From: Synergistaceae bacterium
Lineage (GTDB): Bacteria > Synergistota > Synergistia > Synergistales > Synergistaceae
Assembly (NCBI GenBank): GCA_030523725.1
Contig: JAUNHV010000001.1
Span: 248,001-312,000 of the forward strand
Direction of reading: 5' to 3'
Length of the DNA stretch: 64,000 nt
The notes beneath the pieces are model-generated. The model searched no databases. It was given only the letters and a program-made list of their open reading frames with translations, and was not told the origin of the DNA. Of this stretch, positions 33,856 through 53,416 are shown piece after piece; within the stretch, counting starts at the first letter, position 1, and each line of letters opens with the position of its first letter. The translations under genes were made by a program, and so were the position numbers.

Positions 33856-33880
33856 TTTTTTTAGTATTTTAATTGGGCAT

Positions 33881-33955
33881 GGGCGGTTAACTCAGCGGTA
33901 GAGTGTCACCTTCACACGGTGGAAGTCGTTGGTTCAAACCCAATACCGCCCACCA
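33881..33955 (+). tRNA. tRNA-Val (anticodon CAC)
   Basis: 75 nt. Acceptor GGGCGGT pairs with ACCGCCC, discriminator A, encoded CCA; anticodon loop TTCACAC gives CAC. Last of the four clustered tRNAs. Confidence 0.95.
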
Positions 33956-34067: not shown

Positions 34068-34110
34068 TAATAACAATAAACAGGCGAGATGCAATTAACA
34101 TCTCGCCTGT
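34068..34110 (-). terminator. Terminator of the giant autotransporter gene (possibly bidirectional)
   Basis: A perfect 12-bp stem, ACAGGCGAGATG (34080-34091) with CATCTCGCCTGT (34099-34110) and a 7-base loop, is followed on the minus strand by a T-rich tail. A short T-run on the plus side could also stop readthrough from the tRNAs. Confidence 0.85.
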
Positions 34111-34139
34111 TTTATTATGTTCTTCGATTCTTCACGCCT

Positions 34140-34940
34140 TTATAGTGTAAAACGGAAACCTAAATTAAAATTAACTGAATTACTAATATCCTTGTAGTGC
34201 TTAACAAGTTCTGCATAGAAGTAGCTAGCTTTACCCATCTGCCAGCCACCACCGAGAGAAACTTCCCACCAATTGTGTGCACCATCCTGTTTGTATGATG
34301 CATCACCATATGTAACACTCGCTGAACCAGCAAAATCATGGTAGTAATTTACATTAAGATAATAGTTAATGTTACTAACTCGCTGTCCAAGGGCTATGCC
34401 CCATCTAGTAATGAAATGGTTTGTGCTATCTATGTCCGCCACATAAGCAGCGCTACTTGTCTTCTTTGCACCACTCAAATAACCATAGATAAGCTCAACT
34501 TGTGGCTCAAGGTAAAAACCATTTTTGCCCAAATTTGCTCTATATCCATATTCACCAGAGAGCGTTACACCATTCATAGCATAATCCAATTTTGTTACAA
34601 TCCCTGTATCATAGCTTGTTGTATCACTATCGTACTTTCCATAACGAAGGATGAAATCAAAATAGTGACCGGTGTTATAGATTTTTGTGTAATAAACACC
34701 TAGTGATGTTGATTCTAAATCGCCACCACCAATCTTAAATGACTGGTTTCCGTCCATGTGTTCAAAAGAAAGACCAAGGTAACCACGAGAAGTTGTATCA
34801 TTTTTCAAGGCAACGTCATATCCTATTTGGTAGAGATTGCCAGAGACATTGAGCTTTCTGCCCATATTGAGGTCATCCAAGCTTCTTTGGAAACGCATCC
34901 AACCAGTATTACTTTCTTCACCGCTACGAAGATCGCCAAG
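34140..34940 (-). other. Autotransporter beta-barrel domain region
   Basis: The C-terminal 265 or so residues contain alternating amphipathic strands typical of the outer-membrane translocator, for example GYLGLSFEHMDG, GHYFDFILRYGKYD, GVTLSGEYGYRANLG and GFYLEPQVELIYGYL, with an aromatic-rich end FNLGFRFTL. The preceding helix (NLAWLESVNNLQKRLGDLR) fits the pore-spanning linker. Confidence 0.9.
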
Positions 34941-37900
34941 GCGTTTTTGCAGGTTATTGACACTCTCCAACCAAGCGAGATTTATCGCATTTACTGTATC
35001 AGAAAGTGACATCGTAGTCTCGCTAGCTTCCGCTCCTTTAACCTTGGTAAACGTAAACTCGCCCTTTTCTTTGTCGTATCCAGCCATATAAGCTTGCGTA
35101 TGTGACGCAACATGCAAGTTCCTTGTATCACCATCGTAAGAAACAGCAGAGGCTAAAGCTTTGTTAGAAGTAAAGAGAACTTTCGTTACATCTCCGCTTG
35201 CTTCTGTTAAGAGTGTCAAGGCAGTGATGTGGAGTTTACCGTTATTACCTATGGTCACCGGAACAGAATCATCAAAGTTATCCATCTTTTTTGCTGCAAG
35301 GTCAACATCTAACTTCAAATATCCATCAGCTAATAGATTAATGTTTCTAACAACGTAACTTATTACCTTGTTGTCTTGGAAATCAAAACCACCACCATTA
35401 AATGTTAAATCATTATCTGCCATATAACTTTCTTGTGTAATCCTTGAATATCCTTGTGCTGCAATAATATTCTGATTAGAAAGCTGGGCATCCAAGGTCA
35501 CTCCATACATACTTTTTAGTTGAACATCACCATTCTCAGTTGGCATACTTGATTTAACGAGCTTAGTTAAGGTACCACCATTCAATGTTAACGTTCCATC
35601 GTTAGTTACGGTGTTATTAAGCTCGTTTGCCTCAATCGTAAGAGAACCAGTATTTAATATGCTACCATTACCGCTAACACCAAAACCAGATGCAAATGTT
35701 GTCGTCCCTGTAACGGTCATTATACCATCATTCACCACGGAATTTTGCATATTGATCGTATCAGCAAATTCAACTGCTCCAGCATTCATCACAGATGCCC
35801 CTTCAAATCCAGTTACGGTTAAGTTAGAAAGCCTCAGTGTATCCCCCTCATTTACCTTAACTCCACCGAAGGAAGCACCATTTAACGTATAACCTCCACC
35901 ATCAATCGTAAAGTCTCTTGCCTCTTGACCATTTCTGGTTAATGTGCCTAATGAGGTCGCACCTACAGGAAGAATTCCCTCAGTACTCTTTCCTAAAGTA
36001 ACATCCTTTAAGAAAACATATGTTAGTGGTGGATCATCTCGCATCCATGTATCTTTGGAAAGATTTATCGCACCATAAAGTGTACATCCTTCCAAGGCCT
36101 TTACGTGTAGTTTACCCTCATTGCCTTCGCCCTCTATTGCTGCAAATCTGTACGCTATATCTGTGCCATTTACCACTGTTCCACCAATCAATGTTAGGTT
36201 ACTAACATTACCAGTAAAGAGGTCTATATCTGCCTCATCATTTATTTTGAAAGTCCCATCGTTATAAATGCTGGACCTTAGGGATGCAAATTTCATTGTA
36301 CCCAACGCAGTACCTGTTATATCAATGCTATCATTAATTGCCGCTCCTTCATTACCATCTCTGTAGAGCTTTGTATTAAACATTATTTTGTTTGCTTCAT
36401 TTTTTTTGCTCGCCTCATTTATTTCGTCGGTTAGTGCTGTGAAATTTTTTACAGTTACAATATTTCCAGCCGTCCTAGCACTTCCTTCACTGATGTCTAT
36501 AGTCCCACCAATCAAAGTGACACTGTCTGTTTCATTCAGATGACCTTTACCTGTTCTCAATGTTCCCATTGTAACAATATCTTGGTCGCTTACTGTTACT
36601 CCGTATTTAAATGATTTTACACCAATTCCAAGATGGAGGTTTCCTCTCTTACCTATTGATGCAGATACATTTTGACCTATCTGTGTGCCAATAAGATCTA
36701 ATATTCCATCATTTGTTACTGCACTACCAAGATTTTTTGCTAAACTAACAAGAGATCCACTATCACTAATTGTTATTTTATTTGTAGCAATGTTTGCAGC
36801 CGATACCACAGCTTCGGTTATTAATGTTTCACCGCTTCCTGTTAGAGCATTTTTTAATGTGCCTTGAAATAATTTTAACGTTCCTTCATTCGTCACATCA
36901 CCACTAACATTGCTAGCAGATATTTCAAGAGACTTATTCGTCCTTATTCTTATTTGATTAGCTATGCTTGCATCGGATTTTACATCACCTACTATTTCAG
37001 TTACACCATTTCCCGTTACAGTATTTACCAATGTTCCGTCTGACAAGACTAATGCTCCATAGTTTGTCACATCACCATTCAAATTACCTGCTGAGATATC
37101 AAGCGATTTGTCTTCATTCACTGTTACGTCATTTGTTATCTTTGCAGTGGACACCACATTGCCATCTATTACTGTCAAGCCGCTACCATTTATTGTCTTT
37201 TCCAGCATACCTTTTGATAATGTTAAAGTCCCATCGTTTGTTACATCACCACCAACATTGTTTGCAGAAGTTGCAAGAGATTTAGCCGCGTTTATTGCTA
37301 TTGTATTTGCAATTTTTGCGCTAGACTCTACATCTCCATCTATCACAGTTTTGCCACTCCCAGTCACAGCATTTGTCAATGTTCCATCTGCAAGGGTTAA
37401 AGTTCCTTCGTTTGTTACAACTCCACCAACATTGCTTGCTGAGATTACAAGTGACCTTGTATTATTTATTGTTATTGTATTAGCAATGCTTGCGGTAAAT
37501 GTCACCGCTCCATCTATTATTGTTGAGCCATCACCATTTATTGCCTTTTCTAACGTTCCAGTTCCAAACAAGGTTAACGTTCCATTGTTAGTTACGGTGT
37601 TATTAAGCTCGTTTGCCTCAATCGTAAGAGAACCAGTATTTAATATGCTACCATTACCGCTAACACCAAAACCAGATGCAAATGTTGTCGTCCCTGTAAC
37701 GGTCATTATACCATCATTCACCACGGAATTTTGCATATTGATCGTATCAGCAAATTCAACTGCTCCAGCATTCATCACAGATGCCCCTTCAAATCCAGTT
37801 ACGGTTAAGTTAGAAAGCCTCAGTGTATCCCCCTCATTTACCTTAACTCCACCGAAGGAAGCACCATTTAACGTATAACCTCCACCATCAATCGTAAAGT

Positions 37901-40900
37901 CTCTTGCCTCTTGACCATTTCTGGTTAATGTGCCTAATGAGGTCGCACCTACAGGAAGAATTCCCTCAGTACTCTTTCCTAAAGTAACATCCTTTAAGAA
38001 AACATATGTTAGTGGTGGATCATCTCGCATCCATGTATCTTTGGAAAGATTTATCGCACCATAAAGTGTACATCCTTCCAAGGCCTTTACGTGTAGTTTA
38101 CCCTCATTGCCTTCGCCCTCTATTGCTGCAAATCTGTACGCTATATCTGTGCCATTTACCACTGTTCCACCAATCAATGTTAGGTTACTAACATTACCAG
38201 TAAAGAGGTCTATATCTGCCTCATCATTTATTTTGAAAGTCCCATCGTTATAAATGCTGGACCTTAGGGATGCAAATTTCATTGTACCCAACGCAGTACC
38301 TGTTATATCAATGCTATCATTAATTGCCGCTCCTTCATTACCATCTCTGTAGAGCTTTGTATTAAACATTATTTTGTTTGCTTCATTTTTTTTGCTCGCC
38401 TCATTTATTTCGTCGGTTAGTGCTGTGAAATTTTTTACAGTTACAATATTTCCAGCCGTCCTAGCACTTCCTTCACTGATGTCTATAGTCCCACCAATCA
38501 AAGTGACACTGTCTGTTTCATTCAGATGACCTTTACCTGTTCTCAATGTTCCCATTGTAACAATATCTTGGTCGCTTACTGTTACTCCGTATTTAAATGA
38601 TTTTACACCAATTCCAAGATGGAGGTTTCCTCTCTTACCTATTGATGCAGATACATTTTGACCTATCTGTGTGCCAATAAGATCTAATATTCCATCATTT
38701 GTTACTGCACTACCAAGATTTTTTGCTAAACTAACAAGAGATCCACTATCACTAATTGTTATTTTATTTGTAGCAATGTTTGCAGCCGATACCACAGCTT
38801 CGGTTATTAATGTTTCACCGCTTCCTGTTAGAGCATTTTTTAATGTGCCTTGAAATAATTTTAACGTTCCTTCATTCGTCACATCACCACTAACATTGCT
38901 AGCAGATATTTCAAGAGACTTATTCGTCCTTATTCTTATTTGATTAGCTATGCTTGCATCGGATTTTACATCACCTACTATTTCAGTTACACCATTTCCC
39001 GTTACAGTATTTACCAATGTTCCGTCTGACAAGACTAATGCTCCATAGTTTGTCACATCACCATTCAAATTACCTGCTGAGATATCAAGCGATTTGTCTT
39101 CATTCACTGTTACGTCATTTGTTATCTTTGCAGTGGACACCACATTGCCATCTATTACTGTCAAGCCGCTACCATTTATTGTCTTTTCCAGCATACCTTT
39201 TGATAATGTTAAAGTCCCATCGTTTGTTACATCACCACCAACATTGTTTGCAGAAGTTGCAAGAGATTTAGCCGCGTTTATTGCTATTGTATTTGCAATT
39301 TTTGCGCTAGACTCTACATCTCCATCTATCACAGTTTTGCCACTCCCAGTCACAGCATTTGTCAATGTTCCATCTGCAAGGGTTAAAGTTCCTTCGTTTG
39401 TTACAACTCCACCAACATTGCTTGCTGAGATTACAAGTGACCTTGTATTATTTATTGTTATTGTATTAGCAATGCTTACAGTGGAAGACACAGCACCATT
39501 TATTATGGTCGAGCCACCACCGTTTATTGCCTTGCCTAATGTGCCAGTCCCAAACAATGTCAAGATCCCATCGTTTGCTATAGTACCATAAACATTTCCT
39601 GCTGAGATAGTAAGCGATTTATTTGACAAAATTGCTATTTGGTTGGTTATAGCTCCGTTAGCTGCCACATCTCCTGTAATTATTATGTTACCAGCTCCAA
39701 TTATATTTTTTTCCAATGTTCCGTCTGATAATATTAGTTTACCAGCTTCATTTGTTACATCTCCGTCAACATTACTTGCTGAAATGGCAAGAGATTTATT
39801 GTTATTTATTGTTACAGCATTGGCAATTTTTGTACTGGATACCACAGTACCATCTATCTCTGTTGTACCGTTTCCATTTACTGCATTTTTCAATAAGCCT
39901 TTACCAAGAGTTAGTGTTCCATTGTTAGTGATTGCACCACCAACATTGCCTGCTGCAATAGCAAGAGAATTATTTTGTGTTATTTTTATGACATTAGCAA
40001 TGAGTGCGTCAGACGTAACACTTCCAGCAATCACTGTTTCACCGTAGCCACTTACTTCATGGTTCAATGTCTTGTTGTCCCCCGTAAGGATTAGAGTACC
40101 ATCGTTTATTACAACGTTACCTACATTAGTTGCAGAAATTGCGAGAGATTTTCCCTCTTTTATTGAAATCTCGTTATTTATTGCTTTACTAGCAGTGACA
40201 TTACCTGCTATTACAGTTAAACCATTACCATCTACTCCACTCATTAATGTTGCTGGGAGATCTGCTGACGTTCCACCTGTAATTGTAAGTGTGCCTTTAT
40301 TTGCAACAGCTTTGGTGGTCTGAATATTATCTGCTGCAGTTTCAAGTGAGCTATCACTATTTATAGCTAAGTTCTTTGTTGCTATGCTTGCAACTGAGGC
40401 TACACTTCCCGCAATAATCGTTGAACCGTTTCCGCTTATGTTCTTTATCAAGTTACCATTGCTAAGAGTGAGCCTGGCACCGTCTTCCACAGTTACCTCA
40501 CCACCAACCTTGCTCGCGGAAATTTCAAGAGACTTACTGTTTTGTATCCTTATTGCATTAGCTATGATTGCGTTTGACAGAACATCGCCAGCAATGACTG
40601 TATGACCAGTTCCAGTTTTTTGGGTCTGCATCACAGTATGGTTTAACGTTCCATCTGTAAGGATAAGTGTTCCTGCGTTGTTTACCACAGAACCGCAGAC
40701 ATTGCTTGCAGAAATCTTGAGAGACTTGGCATCATTTATTGTCATTGTGTTGGTTATGAGTACAGTGGACGTAATGTTACCGCTTATTACGGTTTTGCCC
40801 TCTCCATCCACCTCATGTGCCAATTTTTTGTTGTTTCCCGTGAGGATTAATATTCCATCGTTTATAACAGTGCCACCGATATTATCTGCTGCAATAGTGA

Positions 40901-43900
40901 GACTTCTATTGCTGTTTATCAATATAGAGTTGTTGATTGCAACGTTTGATGTAATGTCGCCACCTATAATTGTTTGACCGATTCCATTTATTTCCTTTGC
41001 CAAACTTCCCGTTCCATACAATACAAACTTAGCATCGTTGGTTATGTTGGCTATATCTGCACCAAGTCCGTTAGCTTCTATCGCCATCGAACCACTGTTT
41101 TCAATAGAGCCGATGCCGCTAATACCAAATCCCGAATTGAATACAACTGTCCCTGTAACGGTCATTTTGCCATTATTTTTAACAGAAGCAAACATATTGT
41201 TTGTGCCAGCAAATTCAACTGTTCCAGCATTCGTTACAAAGTCACCGTTGAATCCTGTTACGGTTAAATTAGAAAGAGTCAAGGTGTCTCCATTGTTTAC
41301 TTCAACACCACCATAACCTGCACCATTCAACGTGTGGCCATTGCCATTGATTGTAAATGTGTCTCTTGTCGTTGTCACAGCAGGATCTCCATTTAACGTA
41401 CCTAATGAGGTTTCATTAGATGGAATATACCCAACAGCATCAACTCCAAGTATTACATCATCTGTAAAGGAATATACCGTTGGTGGATTCGCTTTCAATG
41501 GTTCTAGTGTTAGGTTTATTGCACCATAAAGTGTGCAACCTTCAGTTGCTTGTATGTGTAATTGTCCTGCGGTATCTGTAGTAGTAAAATTGTAGGCAAT
41601 ATCCGGACTTTCTACTACCAAGCCACCAACTAATGTGAGACCGGTTACATTACCAGTAAACAAAGAAATATCTGCCCCGCTACCCATAGTAAATGAACCA
41701 TCGTTATAGATATTCGCACTAGTAATATCTATTTTTACATTGCTAGGGATTGTCACATTTCCAGCAACATTTATGCTATCGCTTTTGACCTTTGTAGCAT
41801 CAGTTGAAAGTATTGTGTTAAATACTATCTTGTTTATGCCTTTATCTGCAGTAAAACTATTTATTTTTACAACGTTACCTGCTTCCTCGGCACTTCCATT
41901 TGTTATGTTGATTGTACCATTCTTTAACGTAACATTGTCCGTTGCATTTAAGTGCCATTGTCCTGTTCCGTCATCGCCAGCACCGGTATTGAGTTTTCCT
42001 CTTGCAGAAACTTCAATATCCTGATTGGTCACCTTTACTCCTTTATCAAAGGATTTTTCGCCACCAACAAATTTCAATGTGCCTCTCTTATTTTCTGACG
42101 CAAATACATCGTAACTTAACATCTTTCCAGTAAGATTCAGTGTTCCATCATTGGTTACATCTCCACCAACATTTTCTGCGGAAATTGTGAGAGAATTGTC
42201 ACTGCTTACTGTTATTGCATTCTCTATGCTTTTTCTGGCTACTATGGTTCCATCAATTACTGTTGCACCGTTTCCAGTCACAGTATTGTTTAATATTTCA
42301 GCATCTGCTCCAGACAATCTAAGTGTTCCATTATTTGTAACGTCTCCTCCTATATCATTTGCAGAAATATAAAGAGTTTTGCCACTATTTATTGTTATTT
42401 CGTTGGCTATTTTCGCAGCAGTAGATACAACATTTACACCATCTATTACGGTTGTTCCGTTCCCCTCTATTTTTTGTGTTAATATTCCATCTAACAACGT
42501 TAACGTGCCATTATTCACTACGTCACCATCAACATTATCAGCTAAAATTTCAAGAGAGCCTCTGTCGTATATTTTTATTGCATTCGCGATACTTGCAGTT
42601 GACCTCACAGTTCCAACAACCACAGTAGAACCGCCTCCATTTATCACCTTGTTTAATGTGCCAGTCTTGAGAGTTAGTGTTGCATTGTTTGTTACGTCAC
42701 CAGCAACATCACTTGCGGAAATAGTTAAAGCTCCTGCTGGTGTCCCGGCAGTTGCGTCTTCAGCTAATATAGTTATTGCGTTGGCTATGCTTTTTGTGGA
42801 TATCACGTCTCCGTTTATTACTGTTCGACCAGTTCCAGTTACTGCATTGCGTAATTTGCCGTCTGATAATGTTAGCGTTCCTGCAGTATTTGTTACTATC
42901 CCACCAATATTATTTGCAGAAATTTTAAGAGAATTACTGCCTTTTATTTCTATCGCATTGGCTATGTTTTCATCAGATGTTACAACTCCGTTTATTACAG
43001 TTTCACCGTTTCCACTTATTTCATTTGCTAAAGTGCCTCCTAAAAGGGTTAGCATTCCATCGTTTGTTACAACACCACCAACATTATTTGCAGAAATTTT
43101 AAGAGATTTTTCACTATTTATCGTTATTTTATTAGCAATGTTTTTGTCGGATGTTACAGCTCCATCAATAATTGTTACACCACTTCCGCTTACTGTTTTT
43201 GCCAAGGAACCACCTGAAAGGATTAGCGTTCCGTCGTTTGTTACAGCACCATCAACGTTACCTGCAGAAATTGCAAGGCTTTTTGTAGCATTTATTGTTA
43301 TTTTATTAGCAATGTTTTTATCAGATGTTACAGTTCCATCAATAATTGTTGAACCGTTTCCGCTCACTGCTTTCGCTAATGTCCCATCTGTAAGGGTTAG
43401 TGTTCCCGCTTCATTTGTTACGGTATTACCAACATAATTAGCGGAAATTGTAAGAGATTTGCCATTATTTATTGTTATGGTGTTTCCTATAATCGCACTA
43501 GATATTATATCTCCATCAATTTTTGTTGAACCGTTTCCTTTTACCGCATAGGCTAATTCACCATTAGACAATGTTAGTGTTCCAGCATCATTTGTTACAA
43601 CTCCCCCAATACTGCTAGCAGAAATTGTGAGAGAATTACTACCAGCTATTGTTATGGTGTTTCCTATGCTTGCATCAGACATTACAGCTCCAGCAATCAC
43701 AGTTGAACCGTTCCCACTTACATTACGGCTCAATGTGTCACCTTCAAGAGTTAGCGTGCCTTTGTTTGTCACGTCACCGCCAATATTATCTGCAGAAATA
43801 TTAAGAGATTTTCCGCTATTTATTGTTATTTCATTTTCTATGATTTCATTAGATATAACATCTCCGGCTATTATCGTTTCACCGCTTCCCTCAACTGCAT

Positions 43901-46900
43901 TGCCCAATGTGCCATCCAAAAGACTTAGTTTTCCATTGTTAGTAACAGTAAAATCGCCACCAACTTTATCTGCGGAAATTACAAGTCTCTTGTCAGTATT
44001 TATTGTTATTTTGTCATCAATGTTTGCCGTGGAAATTACGATTCCATCAATTACCGTTGAGCTATTCGTATTGTTTCCTGTTACAGTGTGCTTCAAAATT
44101 CCACCAGATAGTGTTAGAGTTCCACTGTTTGTCACGTCACCTGCAACATGACCGGCAGAAATTTTAAGGGACTTTCCTTCATTTACTGTTATTGCGTTAG
44201 CAATTCGTGTATTAGCAATCACATATCCGTCAACGACGGTGCTACCCGCTCCGCTTACGGCATAGTTTAATGTGCCATCGGACAGGGTTAGCGTTCCTGC
44301 TTCGTTTGTTACCCTCCCACCAATGTTATTTGCAGAAATTCCAAGAGAGTTTGAACTACTTATAGTTATTGCATTTGCTATAAGCTTGTTGGACGTAACT
44401 GCTCCGTCTATTATCGTCTGCCCATCTCCGCTTACAGCACTCTCCAACGTGCCATCTTTAAGAGTTAGCGTTCCGTTGTTTGTTGTTTCGTTGCCAAGAT
44501 TGCTAGCCCCTATCGTAAGGGAGCTTGTGTTTGTTATGACACCATCACCACTAACGCCAAAACCTGAGGCAAATGTTGTTGCCCCAGTTACATTCATTGC
44601 TCCGTTATTTATTACAGAGCTTTCCATTGTGTTTGTGTCATTAAACTCAAGTGTTCCTGCGTTTGTTAGAAACACATTGTCCTTAAATTCCTTTACGGTT
44701 AAGTCGGAAAGAATTAAAGTGTCACCTTCATTCACAGTAATTCCACCATATTGCTTAGCATTACCACTTAATACTTTTCCATTTCCAAGAATTGTAAAGG
44801 TTTCTCTCGTCTTTTCGTCTGGCAATCCATCGTTTAATGTGCCTAATGAGGTAGCACCTTCCGGCAGAACTCCTGCACCATCAGTTCCCAATGTTGTGTC
44901 TGCTGTAAGACTGTAGGTAGTTGGTAAATTATATTCTGTTCGTGGTGTATTTAAATTTATAGCCTCGTAAAGAGTGCAGCCTTCTTCTGCGTTTATTTTT
45001 ACCTTGCCTTCATTGCCTGCTCCTTCTACTGCAGAGAAAACATAGGACAAATCCGCACTTGCTGTTACACTCTTACCAACAATCTTTAGATTACTTATGT
45101 TACCTGTTTCGGCTGGCACAAATAAATCTATGATTGCCTCATCTCCTACGCCAAACGTGCCTGCGTTAGCAATGTTTGCTCTTGTGGCAGCGATATTCAG
45201 AGTGCTACCTGCCGTTACTGTTCCAGCAACCTTTATGCTATCGCTAATTGCTTTTGCAGTTCCAAGCGTTTTTGACACCTTTGTGTTGAACACAATTCTA
45301 TTTGTCCCATCTTTGGCAGAAAAATCATTTATTTCAACAACATTTGCATTGTGCTCTGTCAAGGCTATGGCACTTCCATTTGTAATATCTATTGTGCCAT
45401 TCTTCAAGGTAACATTATCGGTTGTGTTTATATGGTCTTTGCCAGCCTTTAGTATTCCAAGCGATGTAACACAAATATCCTGATTTGTTAAAGTTATGCC
45501 ATCAGCAAATGTCTTTTCACCAAGCGTAAGGTTTAATGTGCCCCTGTTTGTGGCAGTTACATTTTTGCTCAGTTGTTCGCCAAAGAGTGTGAGTGTTCCA
45601 TCATTAGTTACATTCGCGCCGACATTTTCCGCAGAAATAGTAAGGGTTTTGTCACTATTTATCGTTATTGCGTTGGATATGCTCGCAGTGGATGTCACAT
45701 CTCCGTCAATTACAGTTTCACCACTTCCATTAACTGCATTTTTCAATGTGCCATCTCCGAGAGTCAAGTTTCCACTGTTTGAAACGGTTCTACCAATATA
45801 ATTTGCCGATGAAGTAAGAGATTTTCCACCGTTTATCGTTATTGCGTTAGCCACATTGGCATCGAATGTTACTGTTCCATCAATTACAGTTTCACCGCTG
45901 CCACTTACTGCATTATTCAATGTGTCACCGGTAAGGGTTAGTGTTCCACTGTTTGAAACCGTCACGCCAAGATAATTTGCTGAAGAAGTAAGAGATTTTC
46001 CATCGTTTACCGTTATTGCATTTGCCACATTGGCATTAAAGGTCACAGCTCCGTCAATTTCCGTCGTGCCACTGCCATTTACAGCTTTTGCCAATGTTCC
46101 ACCTGTAAGATTCAGTGTTCCATTGTTTGTTACGAGAGAATCACTAATACAAATGTTTTCCGCAGATATCGCAAGAAGAGCGCTGGGGCTATCTGAAATG
46201 CTTAATGATTGGCCATAAATTTTTTCATTGGATACCACGTTTCCTGTAATATGTGTCTTTACGTTTTCACCAGTTGCTTGTGTCCCTATGCCCTGTGTTG
46301 TTAATGTTCCACCTGTGAGGTATAGGTTGCCAACGCCAGTTACGGCTTTACCGGCACCAATATTATCTGCTGAAATTTCAAGGCTGCTTTGTGCAACACT
46401 AAGATTTATTGAATTATTTATGAGAGCATTAGACAAAACATAACCATTACCTATTACAGTTGAGCCACTTCCAGCTACTGCATTATTCAGTGTGCCACCA
46501 GTGAGTGTCAATTTTTCATTGTTTGCGACAATTCCGCCAATATAATTTGCCGACGAAGTAAGAGATTTTCCGCTGTTTATCGTTATTGCGTTCGCCACAT
46601 TAGCATTAAACGTCACGGTTCCGTCAATTACAGTTTTACCGCTTCCACTTACTGCATTATTCAATGTGTCACCAGTAAGGGTTAGAGTTCCATTGTTAGA
46701 AACTGTTCCACCAATGTAATTTGCCAAGGACGAAAGAGATTTTCCAGAATTGATTGATATTTTAGTCTTTATCGACGCATTGCTTATTACACTTCCATCA
46801 ATTTCTGTTGTGCCATCACCACTTACTTCATGGCTTAATGTGTCACCAGTAAGGGTTAGAGTTCCACTGTTAGAAACTGTTCCACCAATGTAATTTGCCA

Positions 46901-49900
46901 AGGACGAAAGAGATTTTCCAGAATTGATTGATATTTTAGTCTTTATCGACGCATTGCTTATTACACTTCCATCAATTTCTGTTGTGCCACTTCCACTTAC
47001 TTCTTTTCGTAGAATTCCTCCTGTAAGGACTAGCTTTTTGTTTTTACTTATTGCTACAACACCGCCAACATTGCCTGCTGAAATTTTGAGTTCTCCGTCT
47101 TCAATGTTGATCTTGGGAGTGCTTATTTCTTTCTTTGCTGTTAACTTAGCCTTTATTGATGTTGTTCCACTTCCGGTAATTGCATTATTTATGCTATCGT
47201 TAGTCAACAATGTTGTATATGCGTATATTTCCAGTTTGCCATTATTCTCTATGTCACCATCAATATTAGATGCAATTATTTGAAGAGATTTGCCACCATT
47301 TATTATCATTTCACTACTTATTTTGCCAATGGCTGGCGCTATTGATGATATATTACCTGCTATTATTGTTTTACCACTACCCTTTATTCTATGAGCCAAT
47401 GGTTCACCAATACCTAATTTTGATTTGCCTGTCAAGGTCAGAGTTCCATTGTTCGTAACATCCGAAGTAACACCACCAATATTGCCAACAGAAATCTTAA
47501 GCGATTTACCATCATTAATCGTTATGTTGTTGGTAATCGCCTTATCTGATATTACATCACCATCTATCACTAAAGAGCCAAAATCTAATATTTCCTTGTT
47601 TAGCGTTCCATCAGAAAGAATTACCGTTCCTTCTCTATTATGGATAGTATTACCAACGTTATCAGCAGAAATTTCAAACTTTCTGCCAGGCTCAATGTAA
47701 ATCTCTGTATTTATTTTTGCTTCGGATTTAACATCGCCACGAGATATTGCTGTAACACCATTTCCCGATATTTCGTGTGTTAATGTTCCCTGTATCAGGT
47801 CTAGTTGCGCATATTTATTTACAAGGACATCGTGGGTGATGCTATCTGCTAAGATTGCAAGAGCTGTTTTTGCAGAGCCGTTTCCTACCGTTATTTTGTT
47901 TTGTATTTTCTTTCTTGTTTTTACAAATCCACTATCTATTATTGTGTTTCCTTCTCCCATTATGATGTTGTTCAACATCATTTCGTTATCCGCGTCAGAA
48001 CCGCCTGTCAGTTTTAACGTTCCTGCTTCGTTCGTTACGATACCACCCACATTCTCTGCAGAAACCTTAAGAGACTTTCCCTCATTGATTGTTATTTTAT
48101 TTTCTATTTTTGCATTGGATACAATATCTCCGTCAATTACCGTGGAGCCTATTCCGCTAACAGCATTTTCTAATTTGTTTCCTTCTGTTCCTGTCAAGGT
48201 AAGTTTACCATCGTTTGTAACAGCACCGCCAACATTACTAGCAGAAATTTGAAGCGACTTTAGTTTATTTATCATTATTGTGTTAGCTATGCTTTCACTA
48301 GATGTAACAGCACCGTTTATTACTGTTGTTCCACTACCACTTACCTTTTTGCTCAAGGCACCGGCTCCAAGGTTTAACGTTCCGTCATTTGTTATTGTGT
48401 TGCCAAGATTGCTAGCACCTATCGTAAGCGAACCAGTGTTTGTTATATTTCCTGTGCCGGTAACGCCAAAACCTGAGGCAAATGTTGTCGCCCCAGTTAC
48501 ATTCATTGTCCCGTTATTTTCCACCGAGTTATACATATTGTTTGTTCCAGCAAACTCAAGTGTTCCACTACCTTTTTCATCAGAATTTACAGTTACAAAT
48601 GCTCCGTCAAATCCTTTCACTGTCAAATTAGAAAGTGTCAAGGTGTCACCACTATTCACGACAACGCCACCGAATTTTGTTGAGCCATCTGTGCCATTCA
48701 AGGTGTGACCATCACCCTCAATTGTTAAGGAGTGTCTTGTGCCGCCCTCTGGCAACCCTGCATTTAATATTCCTAATGATGTCACATCATCTGGAACAAT
48801 ACCAGCACTTGTATCACTTTCCACAGTCTTATGATGCAATTTTATATCTTCTGTAAGAGTATATGTATCTGGTGGAAGCGCTTTTGCTTCGTCTGTATTT
48901 AGGTTTATTGCTTCATAAAGGGTGTAACCATCCATGGCTTCTATCTTCAATCTACCCTTTTGAGACTTATCTGCCGTAAATAGGTAAGCAAGCTCTGAGC
49001 TTGCTGTTACCTTCTCGCCAACCAAGGTTAAACCGTTCAAATTTTCGCCAGTAAACAACTGCAAATAGGCAAAATTTTGCTTAGCAAACAGATTATTACT
49101 GATATTTAATTTTGTGTCAGCAACATTCACTCTGCCACTTGCAGTCCCCGTTACTGTTATGCTATCACCAATTGCCTTTCCTTCTTTCTCCTCTTGGACA
49201 CCAGTTCCGGTAAGTTTTACGTTAAATACAATTTTATTTGTTCCTTGGGATGCATTGAAATTTTTAACCTTAACAACGTTGGCGTTAGCTTCCGTTAAGT
49301 CATCAGCACTTACGTTTGTAATGTCTATTGTTCCACCATTCAGCGTAATATCATCAGTTTCGTCTATATGTCCTGCACCTGTTCTCAAAATTCCGCTTGT
49401 GGTGACATTTTGATTTTTTATCTCTACACCTGTTCCAAATGATTTCTCACCTATTCCAAGATTTAATGTGCCAGTTTTGTCAGAGGAGGCAGACACATTT
49501 TGCCCCACCAATCTACCTAGAATGGTGAGTGTTCCGTCATTTGTTACTGCCTTGGCAAGATTATTTGACAAAGCAATGAGCGAAGCATTTTCGTTTATCT
49601 TTAGAGCATTATCTATTCTTGCTGTGGAAATTACGACACCACTATTTATTACTGTTGAGCCATCTCCTGTTACTTCTCGTGCCAATGTTACCTTGTCTTG
49701 AGCACTTCCACCACCAAGAAGAGATAATGTCCCGGCGTTCGTTACAGCTCCGCCAACATTGCTTGCGGAAATTTCAAGAGACTTTTCATTATTTATTGTT
49801 ATTTCATTAGCAATGCCAAAATTGGATTTTACTGTTCCGTCTATTTCTGTAAATCCAGCTCCATTTACAGCCTTTTTTAATTCCCCATCTTTTAGAATTA

Positions 49901-52900
49901 GTTTTCCATAGTTTGATACACCATCTGCAACATTGATATCACTAGCTGAAAGGTTAAGGGTGCTGCCATTATTTATAGCCAAGGTTTTACTAGCTATGCT
50001 CTCATTAGATGTTACATTTCCGGAAATGGTCGTAACTCCGGTTCCGCCTATTGCACGCCCCAAGGTGCCGTCTGTAAGGACAAGTGCGCCATTGTTAGTT
50101 ACAATACCTGCGACATTGCCTGCAGAAATCGTGAGAGACTTTTCCGCATTGATTGTTATCGCATTAGCTATACTTACATTAGACGTAACAACTCCGTCTA
50201 TTACAGTTGTGCCGACAGTCATGCCATCTCCCGTTACTGCCTTTGCCAAGGTGCCATCCAAAAGTGTCAGAGTTCCAAGATTTGTTGTGTTACCACCAAT
50301 ATTACTTGCAGAAATTGTGAGAGACTTAAGGCTTTGGATTTCTATTTCATTTCCTATGCTTGCATCAGATGTGACAGCTCCTGTTATTATCGTTTTACCA
50401 CTTCCACTTATTGCATTTGCCAAGGTATTACCCGTAAGATACAGCTGCCCATTGTTCGCCACCGTCACATCACCACCAAGGAAGTTTGCCAAGGTGGTAA
50501 GGGATTTTCCGCTATTTATTGTTATTTCATTGGCTATGTTTGCATTGGCTACAACAGCTCCGTTTATCACAGTTGTGCCAGAGCCTGTTATATCTTTTGC
50601 TAATGTGCCACCATTACCAGTTAGGGTTAGTGTTTTGTTGTTCTCAATGGTGTTACCAAGTTGACCTACGTTTATGGTAAACAGACCTGTATTTGTTATG
50701 GAGCCACTGCCGCTGACTCCGTAGTCGGAATTAAAGGTCGTTTCCCCTGTGACGTTCATTACTCCGTTGTTTTCCACAGAATTATTCATGGTATTCGTGC
50801 CTGTAAACTCAAGTGTCCCAGCGTTTGTAACAAATGACCCATTAAATTCTTTTACGGTAAGGTCTGAAATAATGAGTGTGTCATCACTATTAACGATAAT
50901 TCCACCATTACCGGCGCCATCCAAGGTGTGATTATTACCATTTATTGCAAAACTTCTTGGCTCTGTATCCTTCTCCGTCAAGGTGCCTAATGAAGTCACT
51001 CCTTCTGGAAGATTTCCTGCTTCACTGCCATCACCTAACGCAACATCAGTTTCTAAATCATAATCGCTTGGCGTTCTTGTTACAGCTCCTCCCTTGAGGT
51101 TAATAGCTTCATAAAGGGAATAACCAACCATTTTCTCTGCACTTAAGGATATGATTTGCCAAGTGTTACCATTTTGAGCAATTGTAGGAGTATAACGATA
51201 TATTTTATTGCCAAAGATATAATCAGTCGGCTTTCCAACAAGGGAAATTGTGTCTCCTCCGGTTGTGGCAGTAAACACATCAACCGTGCCAGACCAAATA
51301 TTTTCACCAGTTGCTAATGTTGCAAAGATTGGGTCATAGGCAATTTGGATGTTCAAAGTGTTGTTACCAGCTGCAACACTTGTTACTGTGATAGTATCAG
51401 AAATGCCGGCATCTAAATATGTTCCAACCTTTATTGTTCCGCCACTGTTATTTGCAATGAGATTTGTAAAATTAAGTTCCCTTTTTGTAGTTGCGGTTAC
51501 TTCACGTCCATAACTTTCCTTGCCATCTGTAATAGAATCATAGCCAACATCTATAACACCATCCTTGTCTAACGTGACATTGACACTATCTGTTGATTTG
51601 TGGGAAGTGCTATCAAAAACTGGGAGCCATCGCCCACCGTCAGACAGATATAATTTATTAACACCATTGCCTTCAGTAACAAAGTTTCCATGCACATAAG
51701 AATTATTGTTTGCAAGAGCGATGTTGTTTTCTGCCGAGTTGTATGTACTGTATGCCGTAACATTTCCCTCAAGTTGAATTTCCAAATTAGTTTTATTTAT
51801 TGCTGCTTGTTCTAAATAGCCAAGTGTAATTTTTCCAGAATCTGAGAAAAGTGAGTAATTATCTTGTTTGTTAGGATCCATTTTTACATAGACATTACCA
51901 ATAACGAGGAAATCACCGGAAGAATAAATACCATGGGCAGTATCTGCATTGATATTGCTAATTTTTAACGCACCTGCTTCCTTTGAAATGGCATTCATTA
52001 GCGATAGCTTAGCGGATTCTGTCTTTAAACCGCGGGCGGAAGTGCCATAGGTCTTTATTTGCATCCCATTAACACCATCTATTATGATATCACCACCACC
52101 TGTTTCTATGACGTAAGAAGGAGTAGTAGTATATTTTATCTCCATACCTACGTTGTTTACATCTTTGATAACGATATCTCCGCCCCTTTCGCTTTGCTTG
52201 CTGCTATCCAACTTGACCGTGAAAATTTTTCCATGGAGATAAAGACCTGTCCCCGGACCATCCTTCGGATTAGGATTAATAGAGCTAATGTTAATGTTGC
52301 TCCCATTTGTGCATACCTCCATACCACTCATATACATTCCATAAGCCTCATTCGTGCCACCAGCTTTTACCCCATTTATATTAATATCGCTAGCGGTGCG
52401 TAAGGATGACACATTTCCTACGGTGTAGATACCATAGGCTTTAGCCCACAAATCTTTACTGCTCGCCTCTATATTCGATACGTTGATACCGCCACCACCA
52501 AGAGTATGCCATTTTGTATCAACTTCAGTTGAAAGGGTAGCACCATTTAAATACACTCCACATACAGAAATACCATCATTTAAGTTAGAAGCGGGAAGGC
52601 TTGACTTTACATTACTTATATTCACGGTTGCACCTAACGTATATACAGTTGTCGAAGAACCAACCGCCGCTAGCCCATAGGCTTCTGTTCCTTCAGGTTT
52701 ACTAAGAGAGGGATCTTTTTCGATAGTTGTTACCTTGTCTATATTTATTGCAGCAAGATTATGGTCTTTATTTGTAAGTAAAACATCCAAAACATCCATA
52801 TAATTGTTAGAATAAAAATACATTCCGTATGCGCCATGGCTTTGTAAAAGGTATTTTGTGGAAACTGCACTTATGGTAGGATTGTCAGCAAACCATAGTT

Positions 52901-53126
52901 GACCCGATCCGGCATTAGACAAATGTATTCCATATGCGCCATCCTTATCGGGAGTGGTGACGGCAATGCTTTCGTAAGGGTCATTTGTTCCCTCGTTAAA
53001 CTCTGTCACTGTGGAATTTGTAATCATTGCATAGGCTGGCACACTCAAAATGCTTTGCCCAAAAATAGATAGCACAAGAATCCACACGGAAGCCTTTATA
53101 AATAGTTTATAATATTCTTCTTTCAT
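34140..53126 (-). CDS. Giant modular autotransporter (type V secretion) of 6328 residues
   Basis: An uninterrupted frame of 18,987 bp. The signal peptide spans residues 1-33, with likely cleavage after AYA. Residues about 34-660 form a distinct N-terminal region with repeated short Gly/Ile/Asn motifs (AYGIHL, AYGMYF, AYGMYM). From about 670 the passenger has six modules whose LY(E/G)AINL motifs fall near residues 669, 1402, 2718, 3865, 5020 and 5682. Each then has a GxTLNG / GDTLxLSNLTV block, an FASGFGVSG-type block and, except in the last, a run of about 58-residue repeats (about 6, 15, 13, 13 and 5 by my count) of the form TVIDGxVxSxxxIANxITIN, then KSLxISAxNVGGxVTNxGTL. This is a parallel beta-helix-like pattern. 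The last 260-270 residues are the beta-barrel translocator, ending in GFRFTL. Mass is on the order of 640 kDa. Probable surface adhesin; the ligand is unknown. It has its own promoter and terminator. Confidence 0.95.
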   Translation of the reverse strand: MKEEYYKLFIKASVWILVLSIFGQSILSVPAYAMITNSTVTEFNEGTNDPYESIAVTTPDKDGAYGIHLSNAGSGQLWFADNPTISAVSTKYLLQSHGAYGMYFYSNNYMDVLDVLLTNKDHNLAAINIDKVTTIEKDPSLSKPEGTEAYGLAAVGSSTTVYTLGATVNISNVKSSLPASNLNDGISVCGVYLNGATLSTEVDTKWHTLGGGGINVSNIEASSKDLWAKAYGIYTVGNVSSLRTASDININGVKAGGTNEAYGMYMSGMEVCTNGSNINISSINPNPKDGPGTGLYLHGKIFTVKLDSSKQSERGGDIVIKDVNNVGMEIKYTTTPSYVIETGGGDIIIDGVNGMQIKTYGTSARGLKTESAKLSLMNAISKEAGALKISNINADTAHGIYSSGDFLVIGNVYVKMDPNKQDNYSLFSDSGKITLGYLEQAAINKTNLEIQLEGNVTAYSTYNSAENNIALANNNSYVHGNFVTEGNGVNKLYLSDGGRWLPVFDSTSHKSTDSVNVTLDKDGVIDVGYDSITDGKESYGREVTATTKRELNFTNLIANNSGGTIKVGTYLDAGISDTITVTSVAAGNNTLNIQIAYDPIFATLATGENIWSGTVDVFTATTGGDTISLVGKPTDYIFGNKIYRYTPTIAQNGNTWQIISLSAEKMVGYSLYEAINLKGGAVTRTPSDYDLETDVALGDGSEAGNLPEGVTSLGTLTEKDTEPRSFAINGNNHTLDGAGNGGIIVNSDDTLIISDLTVKEFNGSFVTNAGTLEFTGTNTMNNSVENNGVMNVTGETTFNSDYGVSGSGSITNTGLFTINVGQLGNTIENNKTLTLTGNGGTLAKDITGSGTTVINGAVVANANIANEITINSGKSLTTLANFLGGDVTVANNGQLYLTGNTLANAISGSGKTIITGAVTSDASIGNEIEIQSLKSLTISASNIGGNTTNLGTLTLLDGTLAKAVTGDGMTVGTTVIDGVVTSNVSIANAITINAEKSLTISAGNVAGIVTNNGALVLTDGTLGRAIGGTGVTTISGNVTSNESIASKTLAINNGSTLNLSASDINVADGVSNYGKLILKDGELKKAVNGAGFTEIDGTVKSNFGIANEITINNEKSLEISASNVGGAVTNAGTLSLLGGGSAQDKVTLAREVTGDGSTVINSGVVISTARIDNALKINENASLIALSNNLAKAVTNDGTLTILGRLVGQNVSASSDKTGTLNLGIGEKSFGTGVEIKNQNVTTSGILRTGAGHIDETDDITLNGGTIDITNVSADDLTEANANVVKVKNFNASQGTNKIVFNVKLTGTGVQEEKEGKAIGDSITVTGTASGRVNVADTKLNISNNLFAKQNFAYLQLFTGENLNGLTLVGEKVTASSELAYLFTADKSQKGRLKIEAMDGYTLYEAINLNTDEAKALPPDTYTLTEDIKLHHKTVESDTSAGIVPDDVTSLGILNAGLPEGGTRHSLTIEGDGHTLNGTDGSTKFGGVVVNSGDTLTLSNLTVKGFDGAFVTVNSDEKGSGTLEFAGTNNMYNSVENNGTMNVTGATTFASGFGVTGTGNITNTGSLTIGASNLGNTITNDGTLNLGAGALSKKVSGSGTTVINGAVTSSESIANTIMINKLKSLQISASNVGGAVTNDGKLTLTGTEGNKLENAVSGIGSTVIDGDIVSNAKIENKITINEGKSLKVSAENVGGIVTNEAGTLKLTGGSDADNEMMLNNIIMGEGNTIIDSGFVKTRKKIQNKITVGNGSAKTALAILADSITHDVLVNKYAQLDLIQGTLTHEISGNGVTAISRGDVKSEAKINTEIYIEPGRKFEISADNVGNTIHNREGTVILSDGTLNKEILDFGSLVIDGDVISDKAITNNITINDGKSLKISVGNIGGVTSDVTNNGTLTLTGKSKLGIGEPLAHRIKGSGKTIIAGNISSIAPAIGKISSEMIINGGKSLQIIASNIDGDIENNGKLEIYAYTTLLTNDSINNAITGSGTTSIKAKLTAKKEISTPKINIEDGELKISAGNVGGVVAISKNKKLVLTGGILRKEVSGSGTTEIDGSVISNASIKTKISINSGKSLSSLANYIGGTVSNSGTLTLTGDTLSHEVSGDGTTEIDGSVISNASIKTKISINSGKSLSSLANYIGGTVSNNGTLTLTGDTLNNAVSGSGKTVIDGTVTFNANVANAITINSGKSLTSSANYIGGIVANNEKLTLTGGTLNNAVAGSGSTVIGNGYVLSNALINNSINLSVAQSSLEISADNIGAGKAVTGVGNLYLTGGTLTTQGIGTQATGENVKTHITGNVVSNEKIYGQSLSISDSPSALLAISAENICISDSLVTNNGTLNLTGGTLAKAVNGSGTTEIDGAVTFNANVANAITVNDGKSLTSSANYLGVTVSNSGTLTLTGDTLNNAVSGSGETVIDGTVTFDANVANAITINGGKSLTSSANYIGRTVSNSGNLTLGDGTLKNAVNGSGETVIDGDVTSTASISNAITINSDKTLTISAENVGANVTNDGTLTLFGEQLSKNVTATNRGTLNLTLGEKTFADGITLTNQDICVTSLGILKAGKDHINTTDNVTLKNGTIDITNGSAIALTEHNANVVEINDFSAKDGTNRIVFNTKVSKTLGTAKAISDSIKVAGTVTAGSTLNIAATRANIANAGTFGVGDEAIIDLFVPAETGNISNLKIVGKSVTASADLSYVFSAVEGAGNEGKVKINAEEGCTLYEAINLNTPRTEYNLPTTYSLTADTTLGTDGAGVLPEGATSLGTLNDGLPDEKTRETFTILGNGKVLSGNAKQYGGITVNEGDTLILSDLTVKEFKDNVFLTNAGTLEFNDTNTMESSVINNGAMNVTGATTFASGFGVSGDGVITNTSSLTIGASNLGNETTNNGTLTLKDGTLESAVSGDGQTIIDGAVTSNKLIANAITISSSNSLGISANNIGGRVTNEAGTLTLSDGTLNYAVSGAGSTVVDGYVIANTRIANAITVNEGKSLKISAGHVAGDVTNSGTLTLSGGILKHTVTGNNTNSSTVIDGIVISTANIDDKITINTDKRLVISADKVGGDFTVTNNGKLSLLDGTLGNAVEGSGETIIAGDVISNEIIENEITINSGKSLNISADNIGGDVTNKGTLTLEGDTLSRNVSGNGSTVIAGAVMSDASIGNTITIAGSNSLTISASSIGGVVTNDAGTLTLSNGELAYAVKGNGSTKIDGDIISSAIIGNTITINNGKSLTISANYVGNTVTNEAGTLTLTDGTLAKAVSGNGSTIIDGTVTSDKNIANKITINATKSLAISAGNVDGAVTNDGTLILSGGSLAKTVSGSGVTIIDGAVTSDKNIANKITINSEKSLKISANNVGGVVTNDGMLTLLGGTLANEISGNGETVINGVVTSDENIANAIEIKGSNSLKISANNIGGIVTNTAGTLTLSDGKLRNAVTGTGRTVINGDVISTKSIANAITILAEDATAGTPAGALTISASDVAGDVTNNATLTLKTGTLNKVINGGGSTVVVGTVRSTASIANAIKIYDRGSLEILADNVDGDVVNNGTLTLLDGILTQKIEGNGTTVIDGVNVVSTAAKIANEITINSGKTLYISANDIGGDVTNNGTLRLSGADAEILNNTVTGNGATVIDGTIVARKSIENAITVSSDNSLTISAENVGGDVTNDGTLNLTGKMLSYDVFASENKRGTLKFVGGEKSFDKGVKVTNQDIEVSARGKLNTGAGDDGTGQWHLNATDNVTLKNGTINITNGSAEEAGNVVKINSFTADKGINKIVFNTILSTDATKVKSDSINVAGNVTIPSNVKIDITSANIYNDGSFTMGSGADISLFTGNVTGLTLVGGLVVESPDIAYNFTTTDTAGQLHIQATEGCTLYGAINLTLEPLKANPPTVYSFTDDVILGVDAVGYIPSNETSLGTLNGDPAVTTTRDTFTINGNGHTLNGAGYGGVEVNNGDTLTLSNLTVTGFNGDFVTNAGTVEFAGTNNMFASVKNNGKMTVTGTVVFNSGFGISGIGSIENSGSMAIEANGLGADIANITNDAKFVLYGTGSLAKEINGIGQTIIGGDITSNVAINNSILINSNRSLTIAADNIGGTVINDGILILTGNNKKLAHEVDGEGKTVISGNITSTVLITNTMTINDAKSLKISASNVCGSVVNNAGTLILTDGTLNHTVMQTQKTGTGHTVIAGDVLSNAIIANAIRIQNSKSLEISASKVGGEVTVEDGARLTLSNGNLIKNISGNGSTIIAGSVASVASIATKNLAINSDSSLETAADNIQTTKAVANKGTLTITGGTSADLPATLMSGVDGNGLTVIAGNVTASKAINNEISIKEGKSLAISATNVGNVVINDGTLILTGDNKTLNHEVSGYGETVIAGSVTSDALIANVIKITQNNSLAIAAGNVGGAITNNGTLTLGKGLLKNAVNGNGTTEIDGTVVSSTKIANAVTINNNKSLAISASNVDGDVTNEAGKLILSDGTLEKNIIGAGNIIITGDVAANGAITNQIAILSNKSLTISAGNVYGTIANDGILTLFGTGTLGKAINGGGSTIINGAVSSTVSIANTITINNTRSLVISASNVGGVVTNEGTLTLADGTLTNAVTGSGKTVIDGDVESSAKIANTIAINAAKSLATSANNVGGDVTNDGTLTLSKGMLEKTINGSGLTVIDGNVVSTAKITNDVTVNEDKSLDISAGNLNGDVTNYGALVLSDGTLVNTVTGNGVTEIVGDVKSDASIANQIRIRTNKSLEISASNVSGDVTNEGTLKLFQGTLKNALTGSGETLITEAVVSAANIATNKITISDSGSLVSLAKNLGSAVTNDGILDLIGTQIGQNVSASIGKRGNLHLGIGVKSFKYGVTVSDQDIVTMGTLRTGKGHLNETDSVTLIGGTIDISEGSARTAGNIVTVKNFTALTDEINEASKKNEANKIMFNTKLYRDGNEGAAINDSIDITGTALGTMKFASLRSSIYNDGTFKINDEADIDLFTGNVSNLTLIGGTVVNGTDIAYRFAAIEGEGNEGKLHVKALEGCTLYGAINLSKDTWMRDDPPLTYVFLKDVTLGKSTEGILPVGATSLGTLTRNGQEARDFTIDGGGYTLNGASFGGVKVNEGDTLRLSNLTVTGFEGASVMNAGAVEFADTINMQNSVVNDGIMTVTGTTTFASGFGVSGNGSILNTGSLTIEANELNNTVTNNGTLTLFGTGTLEKAINGDGSTIIDGAVTFTASIANTITINNTRSLVISASNVGGVVTNEGTLTLADGTLTNAVTGSGKTVIDGDVESSAKIANTIAINAAKSLATSANNVGGDVTNDGTLTLSKGMLEKTINGSGLTVIDGNVVSTAKITNDVTVNEDKSLDISAGNLNGDVTNYGALVLSDGTLVNTVTGNGVTEIVGDVKSDASIANQIRIRTNKSLEISASNVSGDVTNEGTLKLFQGTLKNALTGSGETLITEAVVSAANIATNKITISDSGSLVSLAKNLGSAVTNDGILDLIGTQIGQNVSASIGKRGNLHLGIGVKSFKYGVTVSDQDIVTMGTLRTGKGHLNETDSVTLIGGTIDISEGSARTAGNIVTVKNFTALTDEINEASKKNEANKIMFNTKLYRDGNEGAAINDSIDITGTALGTMKFASLRSSIYNDGTFKINDEADIDLFTGNVSNLTLIGGTVVNGTDIAYRFAAIEGEGNEGKLHVKALEGCTLYGAINLSKDTWMRDDPPLTYVFLKDVTLGKSTEGILPVGATSLGTLTRNGQEARDFTIDGGGYTLNGASFGGVKVNEGDTLRLSNLTVTGFEGASVMNAGAVEFADTINMQNSVVNDGIMTVTGTTTFASGFGVSGNGSILNTGSLTIEANELNNTVTNDGTLTLNGGTLTKLVKSSMPTENGDVQLKSMYGVTLDAQLSNQNIIAAQGYSRITQESYMADNDLTFNGGGFDFQDNKVISYVVRNINLLADGYLKLDVDLAAKKMDNFDDSVPVTIGNNGKLHITALTLLTEASGDVTKVLFTSNKALASAVSYDGDTRNLHVASHTQAYMAGYDKEKGEFTFTKVKGAEASETTMSLSDTVNAINLAWLESVNNLQKRLGDLRSGEESNTGWMRFQRSLDDLNMGRKLNVSGNLYQIGYDVALKNDTTSRGYLGLSFEHMDGNQSFKIGGGDLESTSLGVYYTKIYNTGHYFDFILRYGKYDSDTTSYDTGIVTKLDYAMNGVTLSGEYGYRANLGKNGFYLEPQVELIYGYLSGAKKTSSAAYVADIDSTNHFITRWGIALGQRVSNINYYLNVNYYHDFAGSASVTYGDASYKQDGAHNWWEVSLGGGWQMGKASYFYAELVKHYKDISNSVNFNLGFRFTL
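35601..37491. repeat. Tandem module copy A, identical to 37587-39477
   Basis: A 1891-bp block inside the autotransporter gene that reappears exactly 1986 bp further on (662 codons). I found no difference on reading through both copies. The first mismatches are at 35600/37586 on one side and 37492/39478 on the other. It covers the sixth module's LYGAINL block and the preceding five 58-residue repeats with their spacer. Confidence 0.92.
37587..39477. repeat. Tandem module copy B, identical to 35601-37491
   Basis: Second copy of the 1891-bp block, containing the fifth module. About 95 bp of diverged sequence (37492-37586) separates the copies and completes the 1986-bp period. In-frame duplication keeps the gene open. 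Confidence 0.92.
46667..47014. repeat. Two tandem 174-bp units (58 residues each)
   Basis: 46667-46840 and 46841-47014 are almost identical, with only a few differences (for example ATTG/ACTG near 46694/46868 and a diverged last 25 bases). They give two consecutive copies of a unit containing EIDGSVISNASIKTKISIN and SLSSLANYIGGTVSN, and define the 58-residue period of the passenger. Confidence 0.88.
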
Positions 53127-53194
53127 TTTATTTTTTAGTCCCCTTCTCTTTTAAATTTGTACAAAAACATAAGTACCTAAGGATAACACTGATA

Positions 53195-53223
53195 ATAATA
53201 ATGTAACCCCATATTGTTGTCAA
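53195..53223 (-). promoter_or_regulatory. Promoter of the giant autotransporter gene
   Basis: Minus strand TTGACA (53218-53223), 17-bp spacer, TATTAT (53195-53200). Predicted leader of about 60 bases before the ATG at 53126. Confidence 0.8.
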
Positions 53224-53416
53224 TAAAAATGCAAGATTTTATTGAGATTAATGGATTATTTTAACAAGTAATGTTTATTGAAGGTCAAATAAGCTAAAAG
53301 TAAAAACTTTTCCTGAGACGTCCAGATTGTAGGCACTTATTTTTTTATTCTCTTATTCTCTGTAGTGCACTACTAAATCGTAAAAATGCATACCATACAC
53401 TTTCTCTTTAACCATC

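What the first reader, a model, noticed from the sequence alone, without database searches (positions are those of the whole stretch)
34140..53126. A 6328-residue autotransporter built as a hierarchy of repeats
A single unbroken gene fills 30% of the window and predicts a surface protein of roughly 640 kDa with signal peptide, N-terminal region, six-module passenger and beta-barrel. About 50 degenerate 58-residue units are nested in larger modules. That size is exceptional for a classical autotransporter, and there is no sign of decay over 19 kb, which implies selection to keep it.
Basis: partly seen in the sequence, partly recalled or inferred. Interest (0 to 1): 0.85.

Follow-up and report, generated by a model that had tools for sequence, protein, structure and literature searches.

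The report
Giant modular autotransporter in a Synergistaceae bacterium
This is an intact gene for a very large (about 648 kDa) surface protein that exports itself through the bacterial outer membrane and was built by repeatedly copying one export-ready block in front of a single anchor; it is unusually big, but a larger autotransporter made by the same kind of copying was described in 2012.

Summary
Confirmed: one open frame, minus strand, 53126 to 34140, 6328 aa, 648 kDa, with promoter-like site, signal-peptide-like start, terminator, and a C-terminal type Va barrel (Pfam E 2e-25; TIGR01414 E 1e-33; EspP structures E 6e-17). The passenger is an N-terminal module (34-668) plus six modules, each headed by a ~105-aa CAP and followed by 1-16 copies of a 58-aa unit (58 in all). 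Five modules close with a ~185-aa END domain; the sixth closes with the pre-barrel domain. END is homologous to that pre-barrel domain, and the N-terminal module ends in a domain that sits just before the barrel in a 1079-aa paralogue. So the gene looks like complete passengers joined in frame onto one signal peptide and one barrel. One 662-aa stretch is an exact 1891-bp tandem duplicate, very recent or an assembly artefact; without it the protein is still ~5666 aa. The host is a 1.55-Mb Synergistaceae genome with 15 barrels and ~7.5% of its sequence in autotransporters. The size is the largest among 188 Synergistota genomes but not unprecedented: BigE (10,429 aa) has an eightfold-replicated passenger segment (Celik 2012). 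Likely role: long beta-helical surface adhesin (inferred).

The parts
53195..53223 (-). Promoter-like site TTGACA-17-TATTAT
   Evidence: 11 of 12 consensus matches; the number of such sites in the region is not above shuffles, so suggestive only
53140..53149 (-). Purine-rich ribosome-binding-like sequence agagaagggg, 13 nt before ATG
   Evidence: sequence read
53028..53126 (-). Signal-peptide-like N-terminus, aa 1-33 (MKEEYYKLFIKASVWILVLSIFGQSILSVPAYA)
   Evidence: by inspection of the translation: charged start, hydrophobic core, A-Y-A end; no SignalP available
51123..53027 (-). N-terminal passenger module, aa 34-668; its end (aa 470-668) is homologous to the domain immediately before the linker/barrel of paralogue AT_C14b
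   Evidence: phmmer E 2e-12, C14b residues 584-772, barrel motif LQKRLGDLR at 806
48927..51122 (-). Module 1, aa 669-1400: CAP 669-772, 7 units, END 1218-1400
   Evidence: HMMs
44979..48926 (-). Module 2, aa 1401-2716: CAP 1401-1521, 16 units, END 2528-2716
   Evidence: HMMs
41538..44978 (-). Module 3, aa 2717-3863: CAP 2717-2826, 14 units, END 3681-3863
   Evidence: HMMs
38073..41537 (-). Module 4, aa 3864-5018: CAP 3864-3970, 14 units, END 4832-5018
   Evidence: HMMs
36087..38072 (-). Module 5, aa 5019-5680: CAP 5019-5123, 6 units, END 5494-5680
   Evidence: HMMs
35472..36086 (-). Module 6, aa 5681-5885: CAP 5681-5785 and one full unit; its END position is taken by the pre-barrel domain
   Evidence: HMMs
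34953..35471 (-). Pre-barrel (autochaperone-position) domain and linker, aa 5886-6058; homologous to the five END domains
   Evidence: profile-profile probability 82%, E 1.1e-5, 154 columns; aligned with ten paralogues
34140..34952 (-). Autotransporter beta-barrel, aa 6059-6328 and stop
   Evidence: PF03797 E 2.1e-25; TIGR01414 E 1.4e-33; EspP/BrkA/Hbp barrel structures by sequence
37587..39477 (-). Copy 1 of an exact 1891-bp tandem duplication (period 1986 bp = 662 codons, frame kept)
35601..37491 (-). Copy 2 of the exact 1891-bp tandem duplication
34078..34111 (-). Intrinsic terminator-like hairpin AACAGGCGAGATG...CATCTCGCCTGTT followed by a T-rich run, about 30 nt after the stop codon
   Evidence: sequence read

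Best explanation
It is an intact type Va (classical) autotransporter of a Synergistaceae bacterium. Shown: one gene encodes a signal-peptide-like start, a repetitive passenger and a barrel domain; the passenger consists of whole passenger units (CAP, 58-aa repeats, END) copied head to tail, each END being a copy of the type of domain that stands just before the barrel. Inferred: the protein goes through Sec, the BAM machinery inserts the barrel, and the passenger is threaded out C-terminus first and folds outside as a right-handed beta-helix, with the pre-barrel domain as first folding nucleus. Inferred: it stays anchored as a rod up to about 95 nm long and works as a long-reach adhesin or self-association factor. 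Inferred: length changes by in-frame unequal recombination between repeats, at the level of 58-aa units and of whole modules.
For: Barrel. Paralogous barrels align throughout and end ...FNLGFRFTL in all. Repeat hierarchy. END = pre-barrel domain: 82% probability over 154 columns, while END against CAP, units, reversed profiles and the N-terminal region gives under 1%, and random passenger segments lacking END mostly under 4% (highest 15%). Second passenger type at the N-terminus. Unit structure: the AlphaFold model of a module junction gives short repeated strands with pLDDT about 95 in the 58-aa units; among the best but non-significant fold matches are the Ag43 autotransporter passengers. 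Omp85/BamA-type proteins in the genome. Purifying selection. Recent 662-codon duplication in frame. Length scale from Fap2, whose 2905-residue beta-helix is 47 nm long (PMC12397386).
Against: No Pfam family covers the passenger and no solved structure matches the module profile; no Foldseek match reaches E 0.001. CAP and part of END are poorly predicted (pLDDT 33-60). The adhesin role has no direct evidence. The terminal residue is Leu instead of the usual aromatic. No TamB-family protein was found in the genome.
Confidence: 0.8

Rival explanations
1. The true gene is shorter: the exact tandem duplication (or more of the repeat array) is an assembly artefact, and the natural protein is about 5666 aa or another length.
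For: 1891 bp without a single difference; in this assembly several contigs start or end within or beside autotransporter genes, so repeats did strain the assembly.
Against: Short-read assemblers usually collapse exact repeats rather than add them; the duplication keeps the frame and its edges fall in homologous 58-aa units, as expected from unequal crossing-over. Even without it the architecture stands.
Confidence: 0.3
2. The passenger is cleaved and released, or its modules are released separately, acting as secreted factors instead of a cell-bound adhesin.
For: END domains homologous to the pre-barrel domain lie between modules; some autotransporters are processed (general knowledge).
Against: No protease domain or catalytic family found; cleavage sites cannot be predicted here.
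Confidence: 0.15
3. A decaying or non-expressed repeat array kept open by chance or by gene conversion.
For: Repeats with gene conversion can look young.
Against: 458 expected stops, none seen; synonymous sites saturated while amino acids are kept; promoter-like site and terminator present.
Confidence: 0.03

Closest known systems
BigE (beta-proteobacterial giant autotransporter, Celik et al. 2012, PMC3419190)
   Same: Single-chain type Va autotransporter made giant by replication of a passenger segment (eightfold) plus short internal repeats (eight of 69 aa) in front of one barrel.
   Different: BigE is larger (10,429 aa), belongs to the BrkA-like passenger group and another phylum. Here the replicated block also ends in a copy of the pre-barrel domain and holds 1-16 units of 58 aa. 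No sequence comparison with BigE was made (its sequence was not at hand).
Fap2 and RadD of Fusobacterium nucleatum
   Same: Very long beta-helical type Va adhesins in a genome with about 20 autotransporters.
   Different: Fap2 mature protein is 3744 residues; no CAP/58/END module hierarchy was reported in the passages read; lectin and TIGIT binding are shown there, nothing is shown here.
ShdA of Salmonella
   Same: Weak match of the repeat regions to NCBIfam NF011847 (E 7.6e-8 and 1.6e-5).
   Different: 30 and 22 bits against a cut-off of 2249: only a shared repeat style, not membership.
Ag43 / AIDA-type self-associating autotransporters
   Same: Best autotransporter folds in the PDB comparison (Ag43 4kh3, 7kob; probability 0.66-0.69).
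   Different: E-values 0.03-0.08, not significant; no sequence match.
Autotransporters of Synergistaceae genus g6 (G005, G155)
   Same: Share pieces of the CAP/58-aa/END set; open frames up to 3410 aa.
   Different: Shorter and divergent; the set was not found in the other 50 family genomes searched.

Membership tests
Type Va (classical) autotransporter | C-terminal autotransporter barrel (PF03797) | tested here: met
   E 2.1e-25, 90 bits against cut-off 26, aa 6093-6306; TIGR01414 E 1.4e-33
Type Va (classical) autotransporter | N-terminal Sec signal peptide | tested here: inconclusive
   Fits by inspection; no signal-peptide predictor available
Type Va (classical) autotransporter | Helical linker through the barrel | tested here: inconclusive
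   A helix at about aa 6041-6067 in a model of very low confidence
Type Va (classical) autotransporter | Beta-helical passenger | tested here: inconclusive
   58-aa units modelled as repeated short strands at pLDDT about 95; no significant PDB fold match
Type Va (classical) autotransporter | Single chain, no separate translocator protein | tested here: met
   Passenger and barrel in one ORF; the barrel matches the monomeric class
Type Va (classical) autotransporter | BAM machinery in the genome | tested here: met
   Three Omp85-family matches, best E 3.7e-30
BigE-type giant autotransporter | Replication of a passenger domain in one chain | tested here: met
   Six CAP modules, five END domains
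BigE-type giant autotransporter | Sequence homology to BigE / BrkA-like passengers | not tested
   BigE sequence not in the collections searched; so it is built like BigE, membership open
ShdA | Score above the curated cut-off of NF011847 | tested here: not met
   30 and 22 bits against 2249

The most novel reading that the evidence does not exclude
The giant is a concatemer of complete passengers in which every internal END domain still works as an autochaperone, so that secretion proceeds as a relay of folding nuclei; this would be how a 6000-residue chain is drawn through one barrel without ATP, and without a TamB-family protein.
Probability: 0.2. Interest if true: 0.6.

Novelty: new member of a known kind. 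Interest (0 to 1): 0.4.

Why it matters
It shows in one gene how giant autotransporters can grow: unit duplication, module duplication and fusion of two passenger types, each block carrying a copy of the pre-barrel domain. It makes a testable system for the question of what drives secretion of very long passengers. It also shows a small-genome Synergistaceae bacterium that spends about 7.5% of its genome on autotransporters, in a phylum for which I found no paper on classical autotransporters in the library searched.

Tried and rejected
Pfam, NCBIfam and PDB sequence searches of the passenger found no passenger family apart from a weak ShdA likeness. A scan of named genomes with the barrel found nothing, so the organism was placed through valyl-tRNA synthetase. 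Size comparison with Proteobacteria by search was not possible because only genome handles can serve as a centre; the literature was used instead. Fold search of the junction model gave no significant match. Considered and rejected: trimeric or inverse autotransporter (barrel class and C-terminal position wrong), RTX/type I giant adhesin (signal-peptide-like start and barrel present), decay.

Full report
Observation. The window holds one uninterrupted frame on the minus strand from 53126 to 34140, 6328 aa from an ATG, 648 kDa, pI 4.7. From base composition about 458 stops would be expected; the other five frames hold 119 to 718. Upstream are a TTGACA-17-TATTAT site and a purine-rich stretch, downstream a strong hairpin followed by Ts about 30 nt after the stop. 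The first 33 residues read as a Sec signal peptide ending AYA; this is by eye.

Barrel. The C-terminus of the protein matches Pfam PF03797 (E 2.1e-25) and NCBIfam TIGR01414 (E 1.4e-33), and by sequence the solved barrels of EspP, BrkA and Hbp. It aligns without trouble with barrels of paralogues in the same genome. A single-sequence AlphaFold run of this region was uninformative.

Hierarchy of repeats. An HMM iterated from one unit finds 58 units of modal length 58 aa, almost all contiguous within a module. They fall in six groups of 7, 16, 14, 14, 6 and 1. Each group is headed by a conserved CAP of about 105 aa, and five are closed by an END domain of about 185 aa. In the sixth module the END position is taken by the pre-barrel domain. 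Profile comparison shows why: END and the pre-barrel domain of the paralogues are homologous over 154 columns (probability 82%, E 1.1e-5), while END against CAP, units, reversed profiles and the N-terminal region gives under 1%, and the random passenger segments lacking END gave at most 15%, nearly all under 4%. The only other sizeable score (pre-barrel alignment against units, 58%) comes from the piece of a 58-aa unit that stands at the start of that alignment.

Two passenger types. The N-terminal module (34-668) has no CAP. Its end (470-668) is homologous to residues 584-772 of a 1079-aa paralogue, where that domain directly precedes the barrel (barrel motif at 806). So two kinds of passenger appear to have been joined in frame, and both still carry the domain type that elsewhere faces the barrel.

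Recent change. Within modules 4 to 6, 1891 bp are repeated with no difference at a spacing of 1986 bp, exactly 662 codons; the mismatches lie at the edges, in homologous units. This is either very recent unequal crossing-over or an assembly artefact. The other copies are old: synonymous sites are near saturation while pN is about half of pS on average; pN < pS in 1272 of 1275 unit pairs and all END, CAP and barrel pairs.

Genome and phylum. The genome is 1.55 Mb in 15 contigs, with 15 barrel-bearing genes, together 116 kb or 7.5% of the genome, a lower bound because three run off contig ends. Valyl-tRNA synthetase places it in Synergistaceae (78% to a Synergistes MAG). In 188 Synergistota genomes 42 have barrels, and the longest such open frame outside this genome is 3410 aa. 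The CAP/58/END set was found in this genome and in two genomes of one other genus among 53 family genomes. Three Omp85-family proteins are present; no TamB-family match was found although the controls rang.

Structure. AlphaFold of a module junction (two units, END, CAP, first unit; five window rows) gives the units as repeated short strands with pLDDT about 95, END mostly 60-90, CAP low. Foldseek against the PDB gives no match at E 0.001; Ag43 passengers are first by probability (0.66-0.69). A beta-helix is therefore likely but not proven. By the scale of Fap2, 47 nm for 2905 residues (PMC12397386), a fully helical passenger would be about 95 nm long.

Comparison. Celik et al. 2012 (PMC3419190) describe BigE, 10,429 aa, made large by an eightfold replication of a passenger segment and eight internal repeats of 69 aa. 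The present protein is the same kind of thing in another phylum, with a clearer block structure; homology to BigE was not tested. Mechanism and role (Sec, BAM, vectorial folding, adhesion) follow from the type Va family and are inferred. The relay reading, internal END domains as active folding nuclei, is possible and untested.

Noticed in passing
L018, L019, L020, L022, L023, L025, L027 (3' ends of autotransporter genes): The paralogues on these loci have 92-100% identical last 900 nt (barrel region), while the window gene's barrel is only 73-75% identical to them; looks like homogenisation of the barrel by gene conversion or recent spread.
   Followed up: partly
contig ends of G000: C11 start, C14 start, C1 end: Autotransporter genes run off contig ends there, so the near-identical barrels or repeats probably break the assembly and the true gene lengths are larger.
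   Followed up: no
G000 whole genome: No TamB-family (PF04357) match in a genome with 15 autotransporter barrels, although the search rang in six control genomes.
   Followed up: no
L021:2645-14983 (AT_C13b): A 4112-aa paralogue of another barrel class whose protein continues past the barrel with a Q/K/E-rich tail ...QKQEAEQKQKKPQEAIDNNQ.
   Followed up: no
L025:1-6554 (AT_C6): A 588-aa frame overlaps the start of the 1618-aa autotransporter frame in another frame; possible frameshift or sequencing error.
   Followed up: no
window 53127-53740: The giant gene is divergent from feoB (53741-55867) and shares its upstream region with the feo genes; shared iron regulation is conceivable.
   Followed up: no
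window 33598-33955: Four tRNA genes (Arg, His, Lys, Val) lie convergent just downstream of the giant gene.
   Followed up: no
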